Of a DNA stretch of 64,000 nucleotides, positions 48,002 to 63,255 are shown piece after piece. Numbering within the stretch: position 1 is the first letter of the stretch; every line of letters begins with the position of its first letter. Below the pieces are notes generated by a model. The model saw only the letters and a program-made list of their open reading frames with translations. It did not search any database and was not told the DNA's origin. Location: the NCBI GenBank assembly GCA_027382625.1, contig JAJKFJ010021537.1, positions 1 through 64,000 of the forward strand. Reading direction: 5' to 3'. This DNA comes from Tetmemena sp. SeJ-2015 (taxonomy: Eukaryota > Ciliophora > Spirotrichea > Sporadotrichida > Oxytrichidae). The position numbers and the translations under genes are program-made.

Positions 48002-48059
48002 GCGATAGAAGTGATTGCAGAAATAGTGGATAATGCAATAATAAAGTAAAGAATATTAT

Positions 48060-49700
48060 TAAATAGGGATCATATTAAACTTACTAGCGAGTGCGATGAG
48101 TGGCTAGCAGGGACCCAAACAGAGAACCTTAACAGAGATTAAAGCTCAAAGCTCCACCTTAACCTAGACTCTAAGCTAGGAATAACAGACCAATAGACAT
48201 CCTGCGATAATTTCAAAGCGGATGTGGTTAATAAAACGTCTGAATCAGTAGACGTTAAAACCATTAACTGGAGCCCAAATGGGAAAACTTACTCAAACCA
48301 ACTTTTATTTAACAATGAGATCAAAGAGATCAACGAGCCTTGACCACATGAACATTTACTAGATAACTCGTATTTCATGAAAAACTAAGGAAAAAGGGAC
48401 AAAGAAAGATCGACGAGCTCTTCCACAAACATTCCTTGTTGGGGGTAGAGATCATTGCTTAACCAAAATGGCACATTAACCCATGAAAAGCTTTGAGGAA
48501 TCCAAAAATCCGGAAATTTAAAACCAGTCAAGCGCTTTAAATGGGACACAATGTAGTTAACTACTTCAATCTTAATCACACCTACCAGTTCCAATCCTCC
48601 ATGGTAAAATCTTTGTTAAAAAAGGAAACCCATTTGAGAGGATCATTGCCGCCATTACTAAATCACCCCCCAACACTAGGGTAATAGTAAACCAGACCGG
48701 ATTCAACTTGACCAAAATCTACCAAATCCATTTTTACTGAAAAAGAACTCCCAAAAATCTTGAGGTAAGATTAAGGACAAGATCAAACTCCAAGTTTATA
48801 ATATGAACTAGATTTAAAAACTAATGAACAATTTGGAGATAAAATTGAATTTGACCTCAAGATAGTCTTAAACAAGCTTTAAGTGGAAAGAAACCTAAAG
48901 AAAAGAAAGATGGAAAAATATCATTTTGGACTAAAGTAATCCAACAAGCCAAATATAAAAAAAATTAAAAAACATTTGCAACTGTTAACGGGAAATTTAG
49001 ATGGCAAGACTTGGGTGAGGGAAATTAAGAGTTTTCAAAAACACCGACAAAGAACATACTGAAACAACTTTAGAACGGGGACAACACAGTTGGTACAAAA
49101 AACCCCAAAAAGATACATAGAACCAAAGTCTATATGACGCTTAAAGTCAAATACGAAAAAGCAACCTTTTTAAACCCCAACTGATGGTGGGCCCACTACA
49201 AAAGAAAACGAGGATATAATCAAGAACCTTCGTTTTTGAAGTTTTAAATTCCCGACTTCAGGAGTCCCCTAATTTAAAACTAATTCGGTAGCTATAAAGC
49301 CTTTTTAAACACCCCTATACAAATCTCCCTGGAGGAAAATATCGAAAGAAGATTTAAATCTCGAGAGGAAACACGACGAACCCACACAAAACAGAAGTAG
49401 GAAAACGAACACCATAAGGGGAAACAAGATCCAGACAAACACGAACAAAATGGACATAGTTTGTTTTATTAATTTATTAAAGGACTAACACGGGGGGGCG
49501 TTGACTTCCCCAAATTAACAATAAACCAAGACCAGATGCTAAAATGCGTTTTATTTTATTTTTAATTTTTTATTAAAATAAAGAGGCAGCTTAGTATGCG
49601 ATTTCACAAGAATAAAACTGGTTTTAATCTATTTAAACCCTACCTTTTATTTTAAATCTAACTTTTTTTTAAAAAAGGGTTTGGTAATAGAGAAGAGTAA
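48060..49700. other. A-rich segment of foreign composition, no intact gene
   Basis: About 1.6 kb in which the + strand is strongly A-rich and has more C than G, unlike both neighbours. Both strands hold open stretches of 100-180 codons broken by TGA, for example + NKTSESVDVKTINWSPNGKT and minus FVEELVDLSLSLFPQ with GFKFPDFWIPQSFSWVNVP. A-rich sense strands are typical of retroelements, so a decayed retrotransposon is one reading. Poor-quality or chimeric sequence is another. I could not identify a domain. Confidence 0.4.
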
Positions 49701-49733: not shown

Positions 49734-50699
49734 TCACTAATTCTTGTCAGTTAGAACTTAAGATATAATCTTGGATAGTGTATCAAGGGAATCTTTCATG
49801 ACTTCATCAATGATCATTTCCTTGAGTTTTGACTTGACAGCCCCACTGCATCTTAACTGAGGCTAAGGAATCTATACAACTCTTTTGGAAAGCTTAATAA
49901 ATTTATGTGATTGATGTTTAACTCCGAGTACTTTCTTCTCTGAAAGAACAGAGTGATCGAAGATAGGGTAGCAAACAAGAGGAAGGTTAGTGGAGATATC
50001 AATGCTTCCGTTAAAAGATCTCTCCTGCTATGGCTGAGCAAATATCACGCCTATCTTTTATTCAGCCACTTCAACTGCTAGTGAGTTTATGGAAGACTTA
50101 ACCTCAGCCGAATAATTTGGAATGGAAGTTTGTTATGAAATTGAATTATAAGAATTGAGAGGGTGATCAAGCTGACTTGAATTAATGTGTTGCGGTCCGT
50201 TAGTTTAGCCAAGTGGATTATGCTCCAAGAGATAGGCTTGCAGAGGATTGGAAGGTTAGGCGCTGCTGCCTGTGTGCTGATACCAGAGAGACTAGCCATC
50301 TCTTATGAAGATGAATCTTGTTTATTGCACTCCAAACATATCCCTAACTAAAATATTGTCATAAGCAAAAGTTTGCTGACTCATCACTTTTTTTAACTAG
50401 GCTTTCAATTTGATAGCTGATAGCAGTCTCCCCATCCCTGGCTGCATCTATCAGTAGTCTGGCCTTCGTGATGATCTTCTTGAGATTCATCTGCTGCTTC
50501 AAGTGGTTCCGAGACTCTTAGAATCTACTCAGCAACAAGCCACACATCTGTGCAAGCCCATCCCCTAAAAAGTAGTCGTCCAAAGATGCCTATCGAAGTA
50601 AGTTTATCTCCAGGATTCCTATGAGTATAGAAGTGCGAGGGTGCTTCACAGGTAGAGCTAGTACAAACTACCTCTCCTTAAAGCCATAAGGATCGATCT
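49734..50699 (-). CDS. Coiled-coil/GAF protein, C-terminal MDS cluster (inverted)
   Basis: It begins at the 14-bp pointer (50686-50699) and continues the GAF domain broken at 62110: IDPYGFKERQFVLALPVKHP, TSILIGILEIN, YFLGDGLAQMCGLLLSRFQ. Then come a helical linker (LKKIITKARLLIDAARDGET), a Gln/Asn/Ser-rich stretch, and a second GAF-like half (NLPLVCYPIFDHSVLSEKKV, LGVKHQSHKF), ending KEMIIDEVMKDSLDTLSK and TGA at 49734. No start codon exists in this cluster, and the DNA just upstream is the start of the kelch gene on the other strand. One frame change near 50.33 kb suggests a small IES. Confidence 0.8.
50686..50699 (-). other. Scrambled pointer, copy in the C-terminal cluster
   Basis: Minus-sense AGATCGATCCTTAT, identical to + strand 62097-62110. 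The two copies are in inverted orientation, so joining needs inversion of one cluster. The frame (ATC GAT CCT TAT, Ile-Asp-Pro-Tyr) is the same in both. Confidence 0.88.
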
Positions 50700-50707
50700 T
50701 AACTCTT

Positions 50708-51971
50708 ATGCTTGAGAGTGAAGATTTGAATTTAGAGTTTTCAGGGTGAGAAGTTAAGCAACACTAACACTGGGAGGTAAAGCAGCAGGGTAATTTAGAG
50801 AGTAGACTCGCTACGCTAAAGTAAACAATCATCGTAGCATCTAGGTGCGAACACACCTTTAAAAAGAGGCAGCTCTTTCAAAAACTAAAAGCCCTTGCTG
50901 ATGCAAAATTATCTCTCAGCTAAGAAAGGAGAAAACTAAGGAGGTGCTTTGAATGCTCGCTCTGGCTAGAAGAAGATAATATGGTTCAGATGGGGTACGT
51001 ATGAGGCTTTCAAGTTTGACGCAAAGAACGATCGGTGGAATCCTATAGATGCCAGGCCTCTATAGCCCTATCTCTACTTCTCATCAGTTGTTCACCTTAA
51101 CTATCACAGAGGGGCGATGCTCATAGGAGGTTCAGATGAAGATGCTAACTACTATCGAAGAGTTGTACACTTTGAGGAGTACAAAATATTCAAGGACAGG
51201 GCACCTATGATTTGCAAGAGGGCTTTCTTCTGCTCCCTTCATTGCTAAAGTACAGACTAGATTTTTGCTTTTGGGGGTAACGACGGTGATAAGGACTTGA
51301 AATAAGTTGAACTCTATGACCTTGAATATAATAACTGGATTGAGCTCCCGAAGATGAACCAAGCTAGAAATGGAGGTAGCTGCATTATTTTTGAGAAGCA
51401 TAGAGCAATATTTCTTCTAGGTGGAGCTAACCTTGAACAAGGGTCTTTGAACAGCATTGAAAGATTCGACATGCAGACTCAAACTTGGGAACTGATAAAT
51501 TTGCACCTGATTGTCCCTTTGCATGATTTTGTGTGCCACTCTATTGGCAAGAATAGGATACTTATACTTGGACAGCCTGACACTAACACTTCTCAGCTTT
51601 TGCTAAACTAGGATTAAAGTTAGTAGCAGTCTTAGAGAGTGGCAGAATAGCCAGTCCAGCTACAGATAATAGACTTCTCCTTTCATCTTCAAAATGAGTG
51701 CAGACTCCCAGATACCCTTGGCTAAACCTATCTGCCTACTTTCTTGGATGCAGCCGGATTCTTATACATTTTCCACGGCTACTTAGATAACAGCCTCAGT
51801 AATCCATCACAAATGTGCAGACCTTAATCCAGCTGCAATCTGTAAATATGCAAGAGTTTATTGATAAGCAGATGCTTGTTTAGCAGTAAATACTGTAGCA
51901 TTAGCAAATAGAGTAAAAGTAGTAATTTTGAATATTTCTTCTAATTGATTCATAGATTCTCTCATGCTTGA
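50708..51971 (+). CDS. Kelch-repeat protein
   Basis: ATG at 50708 opens MLESEDLNLEFSG. A probable small IES (pointer GGG) leads into a Ser/Gln-rich linker (SLRQSKQSSQHLGANTPLKR). Kelch blades then follow: WGTYEAFKFDAKNDRWNPID, HRGAMLIGGSDEDANYY, STDQIFAFGGNDGDKDLKQV, ELYDLEYNNWIELPKMNQAR, AIFLLGGANLEQGSLNSIER, FDMQTQTWELINL. The Gly-Gly pairs and the Tyr...Trp spacing are typical, and five or more blades can be seen. A last part reads PTFLDAAGFLYIFHGYLDNS. The end is uncertain: the first in-frame TGA is at 51969 and overlaps the next gene on the other strand. The gene lies inside the interval of the scrambled GAF gene. Confidence 0.72.
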
Positions 51972-54900
51972 TTTATCGAATTGTGACTCTGAAAACTGCC
52001 CATAGTATTGATAGTTTACTTCATTTTCTCTAGAACCATAATAGTTAATTAAGAGTTTGATCTTACCGACATCTAAGACGAAAGAGTGAGAGGGGACCTC
52101 TAAATTTTGACTGATTAAGAACTACTTGTGATTCTCAATTTGGTGCTTTCCAAGTACCTCTTCAAGGTTATTAATTTTCTGCCATTCCACTAGTACTCTC
52201 AAGTTGTCTCTGCCATCCTCACTATCTAAAAGTTTATGAATAAATTTCTCCTTCTTTTTTATCTTACCTTCATAGATCTTTCGTTGAATTTCTTTAGCCT
52301 AGCTCAGCCACTGATTCTGAGCAAGCTCTTTTTCTAAGATGATGGTCCGATCAGTTTTTAAACTTTCCTCAAGTAATCCAACTTTCTTATGGACCTCTTC
52401 TATCAACTTTGCTTTCCGCTCTTCAAGGGCTAACTGTATTTACCAGAAAGTGAACTTTATCATCTCAAATAGAAAAAAAAATATATTAAAGCATATAGAC
52501 TGTTACTTTATAATTAAAGCTATCTCAATATTTTGATCTTTGAAACTGATAACATCTTCATTTGAAACTTCTAGTTGCTGCTTAGGGAGCAGAGTTTTAG
52601 AAAGCTCAGTCGTGAGCTCTTTAATTATGGATCTTAGTCTTTGCTTGTTCTCAAACACGAACACCTCATTTCAAAATTCATCTTGCATTTTGAATAATAC
52701 ATTTTATTTGAGGTCTTAAAGTTGCACTACTTGTGTCTGATTAAGCACTTTGGGCAAAGCAATCTCTCGTGATCCAAGCATAAATGCCTGTATTCTTCTC
52801 CAGAATGAAAGTATAGAGAACACAACAATATTTGTTATAAGATGAATGTTCCTTGCACTAGAAATCCTTAGTTTCAAAAGCTGGTTGTCTCTGTATCTCT
52901 ATAGTCCCAAGAAGTTGCTATTGCAAGCTCATCCTATAAGCCTGACTAGCATTCAGAGACTTAGGATCAATTTAGATGTCTCTCTTCCCTTGAATCTCCA
53001 CACTCCCATAACTCGCTCTCTGTTGATCTCTACTTTAATTATGCTCCCTAGGTTATTAGACGATAGTTGAGTCTGAGGCTATGAAATCGATGGGAGAGGG
53101 AGATCGACTCTTCTTGCCCTTCTTTTTCTTCTTCTTTTTGCCACTCCCACTCACCATTGAAACCTCATCCACATCTGCAGAGAGAACTTGGCTTCCACTA
53201 CCTTGCATATAAGCTTATCTCTACTGACTAGAGTCTCTCTTCTAATTAGCTTGAAATAAAGAATTAGCTGCTTCATTCATTCATAAGTAGATAAATATTA
53301 GTTAAAGATACTATGAAGTTTAATAATTGAAGGAGCTGAAAGGCTGGGAGGCGAAATTCGACTAATTGTTTTAAGTTAGCTTAGAGACAGAAAAATTTGC
53401 TTGATCCATGGATGGATTAGATTCTTGCCGATTATGGAAAAGAGGAGTGGCTGCTACGTTACTGCTAGATAAATCAGCGATTCCTAGTCCACCCATCGCA
53501 CCTTAAAACTTCATATCATGCTAGAAGCTGGCATAATAAATTATTACGAGTCAGTAGAAATTAAGTAAAGCACTTTAAGATAGCCTGCTTGTTTCATCTG
53601 GCCGAGAGCTATTAAGAATGTTGATGTTGTAATTGCCCATAACTATGGATTGCTTTTTCTAAGTGCGCGGAGGCTTATCTTTGGGGGTGCTTTAATTTGG
53701 TGGTAATGATATCTATGGCCCGCCTGTCGTGGATATACCGTTTATGTTTATAGCTAAGTTGTTCTTTGTAGTAAGTGCCGTTGGTGCAAGGAGTGTAATA
53801 AAACAATAGCATAGTTATATAATGATGCCTTAGAGGGAGAAGAACCTCCTAATGAACCTTTGTTCGGGTAAGATTACATCTGCTATTACTGCTACTACTG
53901 AGCAATCTGATTATAAAGACATTAAGAGTTTAGAATAATAACTCGATTAGCAGAGAAGTTACTTTGAGAAAGTTTGAGACTCTCATTCATACTATTGTTA
54001 ATAGTGTAGAGAGGGTTGTAATTGTGAGAAACATTTGGCTTATAGAGAGATCGCTGGGACTGAGCTCCAGACTTGTCGCCTATGCTTCCACCTCCAATCT
54101 ATGCTACAGCACTTGGAGTGCCCATAACTCCTGCCAGGTCCATATTACCCATTACTGAAACTCGCCTTTCCTCAGGCAGTGACAGTTTTAAATATATTGA
54201 ACGTTAAATTTAATTCAGTTTATGTCCTAAAGGTAGCTCATTTGTTTACTGTATAGACTAACTGCTTGGAGTTCTCGCAACATTAGTATTCAACATCAAG
54301 CACAACCAATATTATAAAATTCAAGGATGGCGGAGTCTTAGAGTTATGAAATGGAATGTTATTGTTTGAGGTAGTCAAGTTACTGTTAGATGAGAATCTA
54401 GATTAACTCCCCTCGGATAAACCTCCTAACTTACATTAAAATACTTATTATACTGCATCATCCTAGCTGATTTATGTTCTGAGTTTGTCCTATCTTTTGA
54501 GAGTTCTACTACTGTATATAGCCATTACTATACTTTGGAGTCGATGATTGCGGCTGCTGTAGACTTTTGGTTATCAACTCATCTGCCTCATTCTAGAAAA
54601 ATCTTTAATTGTGATCTTTCTGTAATGAGCCTTCTCCTGGCGTTCTCTATTTATAGAAACTGCTTTTCTACTCTGGCTCTGCTTTGAACAAAGATATTGA
54701 TACTGCACAAATATCACATTTAGAATGAACGATTGAGGGACAGACTATAGTTTTGACTTCTAGGTTGTAGGAGACTTGTCATGAGATTCTTCCTCCATAA
54801 TAGGATTGAGGCCAGTCTAATCTAGGAATTGCTTTGGATCTTGCAGCATGGACTATAGCAGAGAGCTGTCGCCAGTCTTCCTTTTCTTCTTCTTTTTCTT

Positions 54901-55511
54901 CTTCTTTTTAAACTATAGACAAAATCCCTAATCCAAGTAAATCCCTCTTCATTTAGAGTTTACGTCTCTGTGAAATATTGACATTAGAAATATCTAGAAC
55001 TGCAGAGTCTGACTCGTTTAATTCCCCGTCCTCATCAGGCTGATGCACATTTTTATTGTTGTGGAATGGATTGGACATCATGCTGCTTTCATCGCCCCCT
55101 CCCTCGCTTTGAAGTAGACTCGCCTCCAGCCACTTAGACCCCTTCAGTTTATTGAATCTATGCTCTACTCTCACGCTTATTGAAGTAATATAAAATTTGT
55201 CTGGGGACTTTGGTAGCTCACCTTATTTTTGGCGCTTGAGGATGGCGACTATCTCCATGTTCTTGCTCAGATTTTTGAGTTCACTAAGTTTGAGCACTTT
55301 TTTATCTATTGGGCACATTATTTCTTCCTCCCCGCTGTTTCTTGCCTCACTCAAGCACAGTTTACAAGATGTGTGCTCCCCGCAATTTAAATGAATAATC
55401 CAGCAATATCTGCATTCATTATATTGTGCAAGGGAGGAGGTAGGGTGACTTATCATTAAGATTGAACATTTCATCGCAAAAGATGCAAGTATTCTCCAAA
55501 TGCTAGTCCAT
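51807..55511 (-). CDS. RING-finger protein with coiled coil and Q/N-rich region
   Basis: ATG at 55511 opens MDQHLENTCIFCDEMFNLND. After a 56-bp IES (pointer TTGC) the RING continues LPCGEHTSCKLC, then EEEIMCPIDKKVLKLSELK. The pattern is CxxC, then CxxH, CxxC and CPxD, so it probably binds zinc and acts as an E3 ubiquitin ligase. Then come ASLLQSEGGGDESSMMSNPF, Lys-rich runs, a long Gln/Asn/Ser-rich part (54.9-53.6 kb) with SVMGNMDLAGVMGTPSAVAQ, SADVDEVSMVSGSGKKKKKK, and a coiled coil (LALEERKAKLIEEVHKKVGL, RDNLRVLVEWQKINNLEEVL). The last domain is unrecognised (VPSHSFVLDVGKIKLLINYY). The stop is TGA at 51807. Several frame changes indicate more IESs. Confidence 0.7.
55382..55441. other. IES inside the RING finger, pointer TTGC
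   Basis: Excised length 56 bp. Removal joins NDKSPYLLPC to GEHTSCKLCLSEA, completing the RING signature. Confidence 0.82.
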
Positions 55512-55599
55512 TTTGCAGATTTAATCAAACCACTTATAACCGTGAATTATAAATCAACCGATATGAACTTCTTCTGCAAAAATAATGGCTCAATACTCA

Positions 55600-58500
55600 T
55601 CAGATATTTAATTAATTCCCTTCATCTGTTAACTTCAATTAAAAATATTTCATAGTCTCACTCTCAATATGATGATGGAATGGTAAATGTGTTTCTTAAA
55701 TAAAAATCTTGCAAAGTAGAATTAGAAGTTGAAAAATATAGGTTTGAACCTAGTTTGTGCAAATACATGTATGAGCCACTTCAATAAAGTTTGCTTCTAA
55801 GGGGAGAGTGACCCTATCTTTCATAATTAGCTCTGTTCTAAAGTTCTCTTTGAGGGAATTCTCTCGAAGGTGGGCTGGCTAGGGTTCTTGGATTAAGGAA
55901 TTTTAGTGAAGATGAATTATATTTAATTATATCAAGAGAAACTTTATTTCTTTGACTTTTTTTGAATTAGCAATTTGTTGTTACTGCTGAGAAGCTGGGG
56001 CCTGATAATTAGGTTCTCTCGCATATCTTGATTAGTAAAGCTCTTCATTAGACTTCATGCTTATAATAAAATAAAAAAAATCAAAGACTACCATATTAAA
56101 GCTTCTAGAGACATCATTTATAAAACAAAATTTAAATAGAAGTTTAATGTGATGCATCAAAGTTTTGAACAGGAGGACTAAAAGCGTTGAAGTTGTAAGA
56201 ACTAGTAGGCTTGTACAAGTCATGAAGCTAAGGCTGCAAATTGTGCTGCACTCCTTCGTTTTATCCATTACTCTGTCTAGCATGTTCATAAACCTGAGAG
56301 TAGGGCGAGATCTTCACCTGCTCTGCTGACCTCAGATCAAACATTCTAGATTGCTGGATGCCGTAAGAAGAAGAAGTCTACTCCGGCTCGGGTCTCTGGT
56401 AGGTAGACTATTGCAAGTTTTATCTGGATGCATTATTCAAAGAAGCTGCAGGGTTAAGATTTCTCAAAGGCATGGTTTGAGCATGCAGATTTTGGGTACT
56501 CTATGCCAATCCATTAGAAGCTGTGGGTTTATAATGACTGATGATTGGCGAGAGGTGCCTGTCTCTCTTTTCAAGTGTGCCTACTATGCTATCATCCAGG
56601 TTTACAAAGCTATCCAGCTCCTTTTCAATTTCTCTGTTTGCATCTATAATTCTATCACTGTGTTCCTTGAGCGCATTTCTCTCGACTATCAAGTTCTCAT
56701 ACTTCTCCTTCAATATGTCGTTGTCTCTATTTACGATTCTGAGGTCTGATCCCAACTACTCACTCTCGTCATCCCTTTTTGTAAGCTTAAGTTTCTGCTC
56801 TCTAAATCTGGTGTGTAATTCCTCCTCTTTGATGTTCTCTAAATGCGTCTGCTCTAAAACTTTACTTACTTAGAGTAGTGATTTTATGAAATGATGATAA
56901 AGTTTGGAGATATAGAGATTCAAACATGAAAATTGTATCCTTCTTAGAAGAGCCAATTGGTTTGATCGATGAAGGTAGTTTGCTTTTTGATGAACTTCAT
57001 CTTATCTCTGACTTCCTATTCCCTCTTTAGGAGATCCTACTGCAGTTTGAGATTAGTCTACTCTCTTATAGAGTTGGGGTCTTGATGAGGGTTGCGCCCT
57101 ATTTAGAATTGGCCTTGAAATCTCGTTTCGTTGGAGTGCATAGGATTGAAGACCAGTTATTAGCCAGTGTTTATGTGGGAGGAGGAGGGGAGGGTAAAGG
57201 TAGACTGGGAATGACTGGCCATGAACTAGTTTGCACTGAATTGGGCAGGTCGAGGATTCAAAACCCTTATCTATTTTGCAATAGATATATATCAGAAAGT
57301 ATAATGAGTATTTAAAGGAGGTTTGTAATAATTAATCTCTGCCTCTCTGGAAATAGACTAAGTTTCCACCAGCTGAATTATTTTATAAATTATATTACCA
57401 AATTAAAAATTGCATCCTTATCTTAACTGCAAACCTAATGAATTTATAATGGATTAAAGATTGATAAAGCACTTTCTATGAGAAAATTAATATTTGCTAA
57501 AATAGGAATGAGATATGATATCTTTATCTCATAATTCAGATAGTTTTAATGAGCTTTGATTACTAAAACTATTAGCAGGCATCTGATGGTTGACTTATCT
57601 TTAAGGTTGAGCCATAGTTCCCATCTATACCCCTGGTGGCTATTGAGGAGCTACTGCTCTTTATTAAGATTAGAAATTGTTCCAGGAAGTTGGAACTACA
57701 TATCTGCCCCAGGTCTAAGTAGGTCTCTGCTAAGCATCTTGCTGAATATTTGCAGTCATCTAAATTTATGCACTCGCCTATCTGATGGATTCGGTGGACT
57801 GATTTGATAGCAATGTCAGCTGCTATTGGTTTGCAGTTGTAATTTGTGGCTGACTCATCTGTTAACTGTTAGTTTCCATTAATGTATTTTTAATTTCTAA
57901 AACCGATTTCCAATTTTTGAGTAGGCATGCGTAAGAGCTTTATTTTAACTCGTTTTAAAATGTGTCTGCTCTCTCTGCCTCTTCTGTTATTCTTAGAGTC
58001 AAAATACTTCAAAGCTATAAGAACTGAGTAACTTATATTATGAGAAGAGTCTGTGATTTTCATCCTCTAGCTAGCTCACTTGACTTCTTAACTACACCAA
58101 TCTGGTTTCTTCGCTTGCCTTGCCAGTCTTCTAGAGACTGTGTTTCTAGTCCACATCCATTAACTCTCGATCAAGTCGCTTCAACTTATCTTCAAGCACC
58201 CTCACTTCATTTTCCTTGTCTCTCAGTCTCCTCCCTAACTCCAATTCCTTTTCCACCAGCTGCTCACTATCCTCCGCTCCTCTGTAAAGCTAGTGCGACA
58301 ACTTATCTTTTAAACCCTTGAGTTCCATTGCTCTGCGATTCTCCTCCTGCATCTAATCCTAAAGAGTGGCTATCTCGTCCTTCAAGTGCTTGTTCCTAGC
58401 TACTTGATCATCGTTTTGCTCCCTCAGTGACTTGTACTCTGATTCATGGTTTCTTAGCAGGTCCTTGTCGCTTCTTATCTTGGTCAACAATAAAACAATT

Positions 58501-58928
58501 CCAATATATCCATTTGTCAATGCCTGCGAGCCATCACTCTCATTATTCTTATTGATGCGTTTGACTTCATCTAATTCTCGCTAAGCCATAGCAATCTGTC
58601 TATCCTGCACATCTAACTTGCTTTCATAGTCCTTGAGTGCTAAGTCTTTGTCATCTCTGAGCAGCTTGAGTCTTTCTTCTAGTTGCTGTACTTAGGCCAA
58701 GAGTGATCTGTAGTCATTGTCAGACTGTTTCAATTCATATACCTCCGACTTCAAGTTTATTATACAATGGTAGAATTGGAATTTGCATTTAAAGAAGTGA
58801 ATGATGATGAGGTCTTTCTGCTGTGAGGTGAGTCCTATTATGGATCTCTAGTTGAGTTGGTGTTGGGATCCGCTTCCTTGCAGCTCCCTCTGATTTTAGG
58901 AGGAGTGTGGGCTTAGAGTGCTTCTCAT
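55600..58928 (-). CDS. Long coiled-coil protein with Q/N-rich middle
   Basis: ATG at 58928 opens MRSTLSPHSSQNQRELQGSG. A coiled coil follows: YRSLLAQVQQLEERLKLLRD, DVQDRQIAMAQRELDEVKRI, LRNHESEYKSLREQNDDQVA, QMQEENRRAMELKGLKDKL, LGRRLRDKENEVRVLEDKLK. The middle (57.8-57.1 kb) is Gln/Pro/Ser-rich. A second coiled coil reads LKREQEVRDKMKFIKKQ, then DLRIVNRDNDILKEKYENLI. The tail is QNLHAQTMPLRNLNPAASLN ... NEELYQSRYAREPNYQAPAS, with the first TGA at 55600, 89 bp before the RING gene. IESs are likely near 58.5, 58.0, 57.4 and 56.1 kb. The layout suggests a cytoskeletal or basal-body protein, which is inference. Confidence 0.62.
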
Positions 58929-59133
58929 TTTATTATACAATTTTCTACTGCGAATGTATGTCTTAAGTGCTGTTTGTTATTATAAGATGTATTATGTGTT
59001 GTTATTGTTGTTGTTGTGCTTCCTGTTTGAATTAATAATTTGTGCTGAAATAAATTTTAATCTCTAAATTATTCTAAAGCATGCATCAATCCATATAGAA
59101 TCATCAGTTATGAAAAATAATTTAGTTCTAAAA
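58929..59133. promoter_or_regulatory. Shared promoter region between divergent genes
   Basis: About 205 bp separate the start codons of the coiled-coil gene (-) and the GAF gene (+). It includes a GTTGTTATTGTTGTTGTTG-type stretch near 59.0 kb. No defined motif recognised. Confidence 0.4.
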
Positions 59134-62110
59134 CATGGAAGATAAGCTGCAACATAATATACAAACTGCTGCTAGTAAAAATAGTGAACAAGCCAGTGGA
59201 TCGCTATACACGACAGTCCAGAATAAACTATTCACTCCAACCGGCAGTAGCAATAACCAAGTGCCACTCAAATTTAAAGTGATTGAAGATATTCTGATAT
59301 GTGTTTGATATTACAAACCTAATATGGAAGCGTTAGTAAGAGAGGGAAGTGCGGTGAGTAGTATTCATGGTCCTGGGTTGGGCGGTTTTGGTGCGAGTTA
59401 CTCAAATATCTCAGAGAGCCTTTCTTAATTAATTATGTCTCGTCCCTCCACCACAGCTGCGGGCGCCCTCCAAAATGGAAATCCCTCAGGCTCCAAAAAT
59501 ATAAGGGAAACTTCAAGACTCTAAACAGGATTTGTAAGTTGCTATTCTATTGTCTAGAAGAATGATGATAGAAAAGTTTTCTTTTTTCTTCTTATATTTG
59601 AAAGTGTATGCTAACTAAAATTCTTATAGAATCTTAGGACAGCAAAAACTTCATGTCTTAGAGAAAATAGAGTTAGCAGAATACAGCGAATAAGCAGAGA
59701 GGCTCCAGATTAAGTTAATTTAAATTTTTCCACATAGATATTGTTTATCTTAAGTGATGCAGGCTTGGGTTATGACGGTCTAAAAATGATTGGTAGAGAT
59801 TAGTCTCCTATTGAAGGTGGAGGAGGAGAGCATCTATAAAGCACTTTGAAGTTGAATACAAGAAAATTCACTCCACTGGAGGAGATCCCTAGAATTGACA
59901 GAGGGGATGGGTTCAGGACGATAGCTCTCACTAATCCTCAATCCACACACAATAGATTGAGATAGATGCAATAGAAGACAGTCATAGGTGGAAGCAGAAT
60001 AAGTTCAAGTGGAGATGGCTAGCCATTCATGAACATCATTATTTAAGGAGATATTTTTTATCTGTAGTGATTAATATAGATTTAACATAGGAGACTTTCC
60101 ATAAAGCACTTTAAGCAGAGGCTCAACAAGCGGGACTGTAGGTCAAAATTAGAACATCAATTTCCAGATATCCACCACAGCTGATCCTCTCAACGGGGGT
60201 CAAAGTACTCAGAGTTTAAAATTGGACTTGCAAAGACTAAGTGAGTACAAGAGCCTCATTGATCAGAAAGAAAGGACGATCTCTGATCTCAGGAACAAAC
60301 TAAAGTTTAAATGCTTCTTAAATAATGCAAGAATAGTTTAATGAGAGCAAGTCTTCAACTACGGGAGGAGGATTCTTAATGAAGTCTAATCTGATGAAGG
60401 CAGACTATTTGATGAATTTCCGCCTCAACGAGCACACGGACACCACTGAGTTAACGGTGCTTTTGGGGCTTATTGGAGAAACACAGTAAACTCACGAGCT
60501 GCTAGTACTGAGGTGCAATAAGATAAGAGAGATGCTTGATCTCTTCGAAGCTAGAATCTAATTCGACGACCTGCTCGTTCTCAAGGAATGTTGAAAATGA
60601 ATTGATTAATTATATTCCTAAAATTTTACTTTACAAGGAAAAGGATTAGAGGATGAATTAATCAATGAGTTAATGTAAGTGCTTACATGTGAATGAAATG
60701 AATCTACATTTGAAGAGTCTAACAGATAGTTTGGTGAACACCTCAAAGAACGAGCTACTACTTAATGAGAAGATTAGGGAGACTGCGAAACTCAAGCATG
60801 ACTAGGCCCTTACTCGCTCCAGAAATGAGTTTCTTGAACGACAGAACTCACTCCTTATCATAAAAAATATTTACTTGGGTCTTATCATAAACTTAATCCA
60901 TGGTTTTTGTGTTTTAATATAGAGTGTCTCATTTTATTTAACCTTTCTTAGGAGGTGAAGGACTTGAAGCAGCAGATGGTAAATATGAAGGAGCTGGAGA
61001 TGCAGATGAATAAGTAAAGAGTGGCGACTAAAACTAGTTGCAAGTAATGACTAGAAGACTAGACACACTTGAGAAGGGACTTGAGGTATTCCAAGAGAAT
61101 AGAAGAGCCAAACCTGATACTTAAATATCAGTTCATCTCTTTCATTTATTATCTGATGACGAGTACAAGCTGAAGAACACAGTCAACTTTTTGATTAGAG
61201 AGACTCAAGAACTCAAGAAAGACATCTAACTCAAACGCAAGACCATAGAGAATAAGGAATCATAACAACATCAATATCATTTTGTGGTGTGTTTTACTAG
61301 GACAGAGAGATATAGAAGCTGTTGAGCAAGATACAGAAGTTCTTATCGCAAAAGAATGAAGAGGGCGATGGACTAAACGACGACGAGTTTGAGTAAGACT
61401 ACTAGGGTGCACTTACTGGAAGAGGAGCCAATGGAACAGCAGGAGATCATTTCACAAACGTCACTGGCTCTCAAATATCTCAAGAAGAAGGTATCCTCCA
61501 TCCTAATCTTATCCTCAAATTTCACTACTTATTTAATCTGCCCGCAGTTAATAAATTTGAAGAGATAAAGAAGAACTTGGACTTTAGATTGAAGGCACTC
61601 TCTTCAAACGATCGCTCTACTTAACTGAGCTAGTAGAGTCTGGCTCCCAGTTCTTTGTAGACTACCTCATCAATAAAGGAGACTTGGCCCAAGTAAAAGA
61701 CAAGTTTAAGCTATTGTGTGAGCAACTCCTAAGGAGCAATCGCTTCATAGAGAAAATCAACTACCTGCTCAACCTTCAATATCAACTTTTCAAAAAGAAT
61801 GATGAGAAGCTGGTCATCAACTTTAAAAAAAAAGCAATAAAGCTCATATATGAAGAATTAGTTTAACTCTGTAGCAAATGAAGCAAGTAATTTCATAGAC
61901 AAGACTGCGAGGGTTACATTATGGATAAGAGACACGCTAAATAACGAGCTCTGGACTTACATGGGGGAGAGAAGGCTGCAGGTGGAGAGCAACACAGATG
62001 TTATAGGGTTTTGCTGCCAAGCTCAACAGACAGTAGTCATTCCCAACGTTAAGGAGTCGCATCTCTTTGATACCGAGTTCGATCAGCTATTCCACTAGAT
62101 CGATCCTTAT
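59134..62110 (+). CDS. Coiled-coil/GAF protein, N-terminal MDS cluster of a scrambled gene
   Basis: It starts MEDKLQHNIQTAASKNSEQA. A Ser/Thr/Gly-rich N-terminus (IMSRPSTTAAGALQNG) is followed by coiled coils (SLKLDLQRLSEYKSLIDQKE, then HELLVLRCNKIREMLDLFEA), FKLLCEQLLRSNRFIEKINY, and from about 61.9 kb the first half of a GAF domain: SNFIDKTARVTLWIRDTLNN, DVIGFCCQAQQTVVIPNVKE, HLFDTEFDQLFHQIDPY. It breaks at the 14-bp pointer at 62097-62110. The apparent stop at 62135 lies in eliminated DNA. The rest of the GAF domain is at 49.7-50.7 kb on the other strand. GAF domains bind small ligands or mediate dimerisation; ligand unknown. Confidence 0.75.
62097..62110 (+). other. Scrambled pointer, copy in the N-terminal cluster
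   Basis: AGATCGATCCTTAT at the end of the + strand MDS. A single copy joins ...FDQLFHQIDPY to GFKERQFVLALP without a frame change. Confidence 0.88.
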
Positions 62111-62205
62111 CCATAATAAAGTGAGTATATGGGCTGATATAAATTTTTGAAAATTTCGAATTAAATTAACAGCTTAAAGACTCTGGATTATAAAATTTCG
62201 ATAAA

Positions 62206-63255
62206 ATGAGAGTGGGAAACATCGATGAAGAGGAACTGTAACTAGTTTACCAGTGGGTCGACTCTATTCCTCTATCAAGGCCTAAAAAGAACATTGCAAG
62301 GGATTTCTCAGATGCAGGTAAATTGAGAATTTTATATCACTCTCTCTCACTTTTCTTTGTCCTTCATTCTAGAATAATTCTCTGTATTAGTGTTGATGGC
62401 TGAGGTGGTCCATAATTTCATTCCGAAGCTGGTGGAACTGCATAACTATCAGGGCACTAGCTCAGTCTCACAGAAGGAATATAACTGGTCAACTCTCAAT
62501 TAAAAGTAAGCATCAATGATTTAGGAGTAGTTTTTGCAACTTTGACTATAGTAAGTAAAGTAAAGTAAAGTAAAGTAAAATTTTAGGAATATAATTAATA
62601 ATCAATTTCTTAAAACAGCACTTATCGTACTGAATTAAAGAATCAGTTATCATCCTATGTAAACTTTGACTATAATAACTTGCTAGTAGAGTGTTCAAGA
62701 AGATCGGATTTCAGTTGTGTAAAGAGGACATGGACGCCTTGATAAAGTGTGAGAACGGGATGGTTGAAAAGACTTTGCGTTTCGTACAGCTAAAGATAGC
62801 TGCCTACCTCAAAAATCCCCAAGCTGTCTAATAGCAAATTTTGACTTCTTAGAGCTCCTCTAATGAATAATTCTTATTTAAATTGAAATGAAATGCTATA
62901 TTATGAAGGACGAGGGAAAAAAGGAGCAGCACAAGGATTTAATATAGACTACTATGAAGAGCAACTTTCGTCCAAGGATAAGTAGATAGAGGAGCTCAAG
63001 GAGACAGTAGAAATCATGGATCTCAAAATTAAAAAGCTAGAGCAACTACTTCTTCTTAAAGACTCGAAGATTGAAGCGCTTTAAACATCGCAGAGTACAG
63101 GCAATCAGTAGAATAAGAATCAATAAATTCAAAGTTAAAACTATGGAGGAAGCCAGCAGACAAATTACCCTGGACGATAATAGGACTTGCAATCAACTTA
63201 ATATAATTAAGGCAGTTATTAAAGAGGACTCGGATAGAAACAGTAAATGTACTGA
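62206..63255 (+). CDS. SPEF1: SPEF1 (CLAMP), CH-like microtubule-associated ciliary protein
   Basis: ATG at 62206. The N-terminal CH-like domain is distinctive: EEELQLVYQWVDSIPLSRPK, KNIARDFSDA, VLMAEVVHNFIPKLVELHNY, SSVSQKEYNWSTLNQKVFKK, IGFQLCKEDMDALIKCENGM, VEKTLRFVQLKIAAYL. This follows the SPEF1/CLAMP family block by block. The C-terminal coiled coil is also typical (DKQIEELKETVEIMDLKIKK, then LEQLLLLKDSKIEAL), ending with a Gln/Asn/Tyr-rich tail and TGA at 63253. SPEF1 binds and bundles microtubules in cilia and cortical arrays. Introns at 62318-62390 and 62506-62689 are needed for the domain. A probable IES lies near 62.83-62.95 kb. Confidence 0.9.
62318..62390 (+). other. Intron 1 of SPEF1, 73 bp
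   Basis: It starts GTAAATTG and ends GTATTAG. Splicing joins ARDFSDA to VLMAEVVHNF. Confidence 0.82.
62506..62689 (+). other. Intron 2 of SPEF1, 184 bp, with nested repeat-flanked insert
   Basis: It starts GTAAGCATC and ends GCTAGTAG. Splicing joins WSTLNQK to VFKKIGFQL. It is unusually long because it contains a 13-bp direct repeat (62538-62550 and 62662-62674) around 111 bp. Confidence 0.75.
62538..62674. repeat. 13-bp direct repeats with microsatellite inside intron 2
   Basis: AACTTTGACTATA flanks a segment with about five GTAAA units (62551-62580). Removing the segment plus one repeat would leave a 60-bp intron, the usual size here, so it may be an IES within an intron. Confidence 0.55.

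What the first reader, a model, noticed from the sequence alone, without database searches (positions are those of the whole stretch)
49734..62110. Inverted, long-range scrambled gene: GAF domain split across 11.4 kb and both strands
A + strand gene (59134-62110) breaks in the middle of a GAF domain, and an orphan minus-strand cluster without a start codon (50699-49734) supplies the second half. Both ends carry the same 14-bp sequence, AGATCGATCCTTAT, in inverted orientation and in the same reading frame. Joining gives ...FHQIDPYGFKERQFVLALP, a normal GAF core. Three other genes (kelch, RING, coiled-coil) lie between. Unscrambling would require inversion, not simple deletion.
Basis: partly seen in the sequence, partly recalled or inferred. 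Interest (0 to 1): 0.95.

Follow-up and report, generated by a model that had tools for sequence, protein, structure and literature searches.

The report
Ciliate gene split and flipped apart
In what looks like the germline DNA of an unnamed ciliate, one gene is cut in two, and its last quarter lies 11.4 kb away on the opposite strand with other genes in between, so the cell must flip and join the pieces to make a working gene, a known trick of these ciliates seen here in a new case.

Summary
The 14-bp word AGATCGATCCTTAT sits exactly where the left part of the gene (59135-62110, +) and the right part (50699-49734, -) break off. Two other contigs (C4032, C1666) carry the same arrangement with the word unchanged. 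Joining the parts at the word, and removing 12 inferred IESs and 2 introns, gives an open frame of 1,070 aa in both of those copies. Two database proteins run straight through the junction: one probably from Oxytricha (55% identity) and one from Stylonychia lemnae (52%). Both parts are under strong purifying selection (pN/pS 0.015-0.067). So this is most likely a functional scrambled gene whose assembly needs a long-range inversion. No macronuclear copy or cDNA of this species was available.

Corrections: the GAF label is only weakly supported. The coiled-coil gene between the parts probably shares a somatic chromosome with this gene, so only the kelch gene and a weak RING-like gene are clearly foreign. 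The window's own copy carries three frame-breaking indels.

Inverted, long-range and nested scrambled genes are already documented in Oxytricha and Tetmemena. This is a clean new member of a known kind.

The parts
59135..62110 (+). Left (5') part of the scrambled gene: 784 codons in C1666, in 13 coding blocks separated by 10 inferred IESs and 2 GT-AG introns; ends with the 14-bp pointer
   Evidence: tblastn of two homologues
62097..62110 (+). Scrambled pointer, left copy (AGATCGATCCTTAT), encodes the end of QIDPY
   Evidence: unchanged in three copies
50686..50699 (-). Scrambled pointer, right copy, inverted
   Evidence: unchanged in three copies
49734..50699 (-). Right (3') part of the gene: 287 further codons including the stop, in three coding blocks (50685-50396, 50346-49920, 49877-49734), ending in TGA
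50347..50395 (-). IES in the right part, pointer TAGTTA
   Evidence: no counterpart in homologues
49878..49919 (-). IES in the right part, pointer GAGTT
59273..59317 (+). IES, pointer CAAA
59534..59629 (+). Intron GTAAG...ATAG
59716..59755 (+). IES, pointer TTAAGT
60037..60088 (+). IES, pointer AACAT
60311..60341 (+). IES, pointer AGTTTAA
60589..60640 (+). IES, pointer CAAGGAA
60659..60703 (+). IES, pointer ATGAAT
60857..60945 (+). IES, pointer CCTT
61119..61157 (+). IES, pointer CTGAT
61259..61302 (+). IES, pointer AGGA
61491..61547 (+). Intron GTATCC...CGCAG
61825..61864 (+). IES, pointer TTTAA in the window copy (C1666 needs a cut at TTT)
50730..51971 (+). Kelch-repeat gene lying between the two parts (nested); open frame, start not settled
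   Evidence: Pfam Kelch_1 E 8.7e-13; homologue P0003 over 54% of the query
51807..55621 (-). Open frames with a weak RING-like stretch, between the two parts (nested); limits are rough
   Evidence: zf-RING_5 E 0.23, below cut-off
55787..58934 (-). Coiled-coil gene, head to head with the left part; probably the partner gene of the same two-gene somatic chromosome (inferred)
   Evidence: homologue P0004 (numbered 403369796, next to P0001's 403369797)
62206..62319 (+). First exon of a gene with a CH_2 domain (SPEF1-like by recall), starting 95 bp after the left pointer
   Evidence: Pfam CH_2 E 1.8e-6

Best explanation
This is a germline (micronuclear) precursor of a functional protein gene in a ciliate related to Oxytricha and Stylonychia, read with TAA and TAG as glutamine. 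The first 784 codons lie on the + strand and the last 286 lie 11.4 kb away on the - strand, with at least two unrelated genes between them. During development of the somatic nucleus, short IESs are cut out at pointers of mostly 4-7 bp, and the two parts are joined in inverted orientation at a 14-bp pointer, of which one copy stays in the coding sequence. Shown here: the two parts, the shared word, the open joined frame in two copies, contiguous homologues, selection on both parts, and the same arrangement on three contigs. Inferred from work on Oxytricha and Stylonychia: that the joining happens in the developing macronucleus, after conventional IES removal and guided by template RNA.
For: Homologues P0001 and P0002, the only two hits among 7,988 scored candidates (a capped list), align with 100% of the searched region (residues 560-1120) and run through the junction without a gap: FHQIDPY|GFKERQFVLALP against FQEIDPYGYKERQFVVAIP and FEQIDPYTYKERTFVMALP. 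tblastn puts their N-terminal parts on the + strand left part and their C-terminal parts on the - strand right part in 3 of 3 copies. The joined frame is 1,070 aa with 0 internal stops in C1666 and C4032. The contigs match the window at 94.7-97.3% in the main blocks, colinear over the interval, with the pointer unchanged. pN/pS is 0.041, 0.015 and 0.017 for the left part and 0.041, 0.067 and 0.045 for the right. In the window copy 12 of 12 inferred IESs have pointers of 4-7 bp. Longer pointers at scrambled junctions are the published rule (PMC9797194, passages).
Against: The joined 31-mer is absent from the assembly (0 with up to 2 mismatches), so no somatic molecule of this species was seen. 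The window's own copy has three frame-breaking indels and 25 internal stops when joined; assembly error and decay are both possible. IES limits were chosen to keep the frame and fit the homologues, so they are not independent of them, and one (61825-61864) needs a 3-bp TTT cut in C1666. In the right part IES divergence is not clearly above coding divergence (0.022-0.077 against 0.038-0.053). In C1666 the left frame does not stop soon after the pointer but runs 93 codons, into the next gene's frame.
Confidence: 0.95

Rival explanations
1. A germline inversion with staggered breaks split and killed the gene; the 14-bp word is the inverted duplication left at the two breakpoints, and nothing is unscrambled.
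For: Staggered breaks do leave short inverted duplications (general knowledge). The window copy has frameshifts. No similarity beyond the 14 bp was seen at either end.
Against: Three copies that differ by 2-5% in coding DNA all share the inversion, yet both parts show pN/pS of 0.015-0.067 and two copies are fully open. DNA searches with 321 bp of the right part and 661 bp around the left end found only these three places. Such an inversion may well be how the scrambled state arose, so this rival may describe the origin rather than the present state.
Confidence: 0.03
2. Misassembly: the contig is falsely inverted and the gene is contiguous in the real germline.
For: The window copy contains small indels that could be sequencing errors.
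Against: Two further contigs carry the same two breakpoints in colinear surroundings; kelch and coiled-coil homologues map between the parts in all three. The DNA next to each breakpoint continues in all three.
Confidence: 0.01
3. Two separate genes, or halves joined by RNA trans-splicing, rather than one gene joined at the DNA level.
For: No DNA product was seen. In the window copy alone the right frame has an upstream ATG, and in C1666 alone the left frame runs on for 93 codons.
Against: The break falls inside a conserved block of single proteins in two relatives. In C4032 and C1666 the right frame has no ATG upstream before a stop. Both ends share a 14-bp word, which pointer-based DNA joining needs and trans-splicing does not, and the word contains no GT that could serve as a splice donor.
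Confidence: 0.01

Closest known systems
Scrambled genes of Oxytricha trifallax and Tetmemena (inverted and translocated MDSs)
   Same: Segments on both strands, pointers at the junctions, a longer pointer at the scrambled junction, IESs within the gene, and a gene readable only after joining (PMC9797194: passages; section 11; part 1 of 2 of the introduction)
   Different: Another, unnamed species whose protein is 52-55% identical in the searched region; only one scrambled junction was found, carrying a quarter of the protein
Nested ('Russian doll') loci
   Same: Other genes lie between two parts of one gene; an 18-bp pointer joins across two other loci in Oxytricha, and a long conserved pointer bridges three. 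1,301 (8%) of 15,811 Oxytricha chromosomes contain nested segments of others (PMC5940158, parts 1 and 2 of 4 read)
   Different: One layer of nesting here, as far as seen; the join here also needs an inversion
Actin I of Stylonychia lemnae
   Same: Assembly requires inversion; conventional IES removal usually comes first (PMC2394655, passages)
   Different: Actin I has three scrambled junctions, including an internal segment out of order
Inversion-type scrambled chromosomes of Strombidium cf. sulcatum and Halteria grandinella
   Same: Inversions make up 69.4% of scrambled chromosomes in S. cf. sulcatum, 37.7% in H. grandinella and 21.4% in O. trifallax (PMC10901763: abstract and outline; section 19)
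   Different: Other lineages; distances between inverted segments were not compared here

Membership tests
Scrambled (inverted) ciliate gene | Consecutive gene segments lie in different orientation or order in germline DNA than in the product | tested here: met
   colinear homologues map to + and - strands, 11.4 kb apart in the window, in 3 of 3 copies (the product is taken from relatives, not from this species)
Scrambled (inverted) ciliate gene | A pointer repeated at the end of segment n and the start of segment n+1, in the orientation that the join needs | tested here: met
   14 bp, inverted, unchanged in three copies; no similarity beyond it stood out from shuffles
Scrambled (inverted) ciliate gene | The somatic chromosome carries the joined product with one copy of the pointer | not testable with these tools
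   no macronuclear DNA or cDNA of this species was found in what I could search; joined 31-mer absent from the assembly
Scrambled (inverted) ciliate gene | Product is a working gene under selection | tested here: met
   pN/pS 0.015-0.067 in both parts, open in two of three copies
Scrambled (inverted) ciliate gene | Ordinary IESs with short pointers in the same gene | tested here: met
   12 of 12 inferred IESs, 4-7 bp in the window copy; limits fitted to frame and homologues
Nested (Russian doll) locus | All segments of another somatic chromosome lie between two segments of this one | tested here: inconclusive
   A kelch gene and RING-like frames lie between the parts, but the limits of their somatic chromosomes were not seen
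GAF domain protein (PF01590) | Match above Pfam's gathering score | tested here: not met
   E 0.0055, 17.7 bits against 22.4, on the joined piece only, neither part alone; DUF5644 is as weak. No GAF in P0001 or P0002 up to E 1, though UniRef names P0002 GAF domain-containing. Model too poor to judge

The most novel reading that the evidence does not exclude
One inversion at the 14-bp pointer would resolve both sides of the locus at once. It completes this gene and would also bring the kelch gene head to head with the CH_2 (SPEF1-like) gene, whose frames open about 30 and 95 bp from the break. [quoted passage not shown] Against the reciprocal part: the DNA just after the left pointer differs strongly in C1666, as eliminated DNA would.
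Probability: 0.2. Interest if true: 0.6.

Novelty: new member of a known kind. Interest (0 to 1): 0.45.

Why it matters
It is a clean one-junction, long-range inverted scrambled gene with its pointer, its ordinary IESs and three diverged copies all readable. That makes it a simple test bed for how far apart and in which orientation pointers can be joined, and for whether scrambling begins with a plain germline inversion. It also shows that raw sequence alone can reveal scrambled genes. The phenomenon itself is well documented.

Tried and rejected
Looked for the joined junction in the assembly: none. Looked for a longer duplication around the pointer, as a paralogy-and-decay model would leave: scores within the range of 300 shuffles for 60-nt and 150-nt flanks; the nearest to a signal was the 150-nt downstream flank of C1666, reached by 30 of 300 shuffles. 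Tested whether the kelch gene starts 8 bp from the pointer: open in C4032, but stops in the window copy and C1666, so dropped. AlphaFold on the Stylonychia homologue with a two-row alignment gave mean pLDDT 37.6 and says nothing about a GAF fold; no fold search was made on it. A protein search of the window's own genome for distant paralogues was asked ten times and never answered, so divergent paralogues are not excluded; the DNA searches used 321 bp and 661 bp and found three places each. A paper search with the terms scrambled, inversion, hairpin, pointer and ciliate found nothing. The species was not identified.

Full report
What is there. I read it with TAA and TAG as glutamine (table 6). 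The + strand gene that starts at 59135 loses its homology after 62110, and 95 bp further on a gene with a CH_2 domain begins. A minus-strand stretch, 50699-49734, carries the rest and ends in TGA. Both broken ends carry AGATCGATCCTTAT, in inverted orientation.

Is it more than chance? In the window the word occurs only at these two places with up to 1 mismatch; 0.06 are expected. It is not unique in the genome: 11 places, 6 of them this locus in three copies and 5 elsewhere, against 4 for the backward control. The window also holds 69 inverted exact 14-mer pairs, 16 of them of mixed composition. The word alone would therefore prove little. Its position at both homology breakpoints is what counts: 1 of 20,000 random pairs of 24-nt stretches shares as long a word.

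Other copies. DNA searches of the same genome with 321 bp of the right part and 661 bp around the left end found the same two further contigs and no other place, C4032 and C1666. The main blocks are 94.7-97.3% identical to the window and colinear with it. The pointer is unchanged in all three copies, while the DNA just after the left pointer differs strongly in C1666, though not in C4032. This argues against misassembly. Whether the three are alleles or duplicates is not known.

The gene. Joining the parts at the pointer, and removing 12 inferred IESs (10 left, 2 right) and 2 introns, gives 1,070 aa and a stop with no internal stop in C1666 and in C4032. In the window copy all 12 IESs have pointers of 4-7 bp. 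Their limits were chosen with the frame and the homologues in view, so they are inferences, and one needs a 3-bp cut in C1666. The window's own copy differs by five indels in coding blocks (+2, -3, -3, -1, -1), giving 25 internal stops when joined as it stands. Whether these are assembly errors or decay is open.

What each side would read alone. After the left pointer the frame meets TGA after 8 codons in the window copy and C4032, but in C1666 it runs 93 codons, into the frame of the CH_2 gene. Before the right pointer the frame runs back 14 codons without an ATG in C4032 and C1666, and 60 codons with one ATG in the window copy. None of these extensions is kept in all three copies.

Contiguous relatives. 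A protein search with residues 560-1120 returned two proteins among 7,988 scored candidates (a capped list), both covering 100% of that region: P0001 (968 aa, 55%, no species given, number 403369797, by recall of such numbers probably Oxytricha trifallax) and P0002 (864 aa, 52%, Stylonychia lemnae). Both run through the junction without a gap. Placed back on the DNA, both map to the left part as far as the residues encoded by the pointer and to the right part from those residues on, in 3 of 3 copies; in the window copy one P0001 hit extends 28 residues further upstream on the right side, which the other two copies do not repeat.

Selection. Synonymous changes far outnumber amino-acid changes in both parts: left 40:6, 55:3 and 97:6; right 29:4, 36.8:8.2 and 40:6 (synonymous:nonsynonymous; uncorrected pN/pS 0.015-0.067). 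The three pairs are not independent, codons are keyed to the C1666 frame, and five codons were skipped in each left comparison with the window copy. In the left part IES and intron DNA differs about three times as much as coding DNA (0.070-0.131 against 0.020-0.044); in the right part this contrast is not seen (0.022-0.077 against 0.038-0.053, on 91-95 bases of IES). A gene broken by the inversion before these copies diverged would not be expected to show such low pN/pS.

What lies between. A kelch gene is clear (Pfam E 8.7e-13; homologue P0003). The RING gene is weak (E 0.23 on one open frame). The coiled-coil gene starts about 200 bp from this gene, head to head. Its homologue P0004 bears the number 403369796, next to P0001's 403369797, and the contig that holds P0002 is 4,671 bp, long enough for both. 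Against this, no Stylonychia homologue of the coiled-coil gene was returned among 7,992 scored candidates (capped list). By inference the two genes share a two-gene somatic chromosome, and only kelch and the RING-like gene are foreign to it.

Protein identity. GAF is only a lead. Pfam GAF matches the joined piece at E 0.0055, below its cut-off, over a stretch that spans the junction, and neither half. P0001 and P0002 have no GAF match in my scan, though UniRef names P0002 so. The structure model is too poor to use.

How it works. The likeliest course, by analogy with Stylonychia actin I, is IES removal first and inversion afterwards (PMC2394655, passages), guided by template RNA as in Oxytricha (PMC9797194, introduction part 1 of 2). 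Neither was tested here. No similarity beyond the 14 bp stood out from shuffles, so there is no sign of the long pointers proposed as an intermediate in Euplotes woodruffi. Undoing the inversion on paper restores this gene on the minus strand and puts kelch head to head with the CH_2 gene, so a single germline inversion is enough to explain how it arose.

What is known. Scrambling by inversion, longer pointers at scrambled junctions, pointers that bridge other loci and nested genes are all published. I did not meet this gene in what I read, but I searched papers only by general terms, so I make no claim that this locus is unpublished.

Verdict. It is a clear new case of a known process; the specialist surprise is modest.

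Noticed in passing
window 48053-49573 and 52467-52515: C1666 lacks about 1.5 kb that the window has before the right part, and has about 630 bp more at 52.5 kb: sizeable indels between copies.
   Followed up: no
C2615:64446-81897 (beyond the window; L014, L015): Repeats, about 72-92% alike, recur several times downstream of the window and on C4032 and C1666; possibly germline-limited mobile elements.
   Followed up: no
window 60605-60634 and 62570-62599: A perfect 30-nt inverted repeat links an IES of this gene with non-coding DNA in the CH_2 gene region; the first arm is altered in both other copies. Origin unexplained.
   Followed up: no
window 57953-56864: About 1.1 kb sits inside the coiled-coil gene, with Q- and P-rich open frames that its homologue P0004 lacks; perhaps a further small nested gene.
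   Followed up: partly
window 59318-59533, 60946-61118, 61548-61824: The window copy has frame-breaking indels (+2, -1, -1) where both other copies are in frame.
   Followed up: partly
C1666, just after the left pointer (equivalent of window 62111-62400): In C1666 the left frame stays open for 93 codons and enters the frame of the next gene; in the other two copies it stops after 8 codons.
   Followed up: partly
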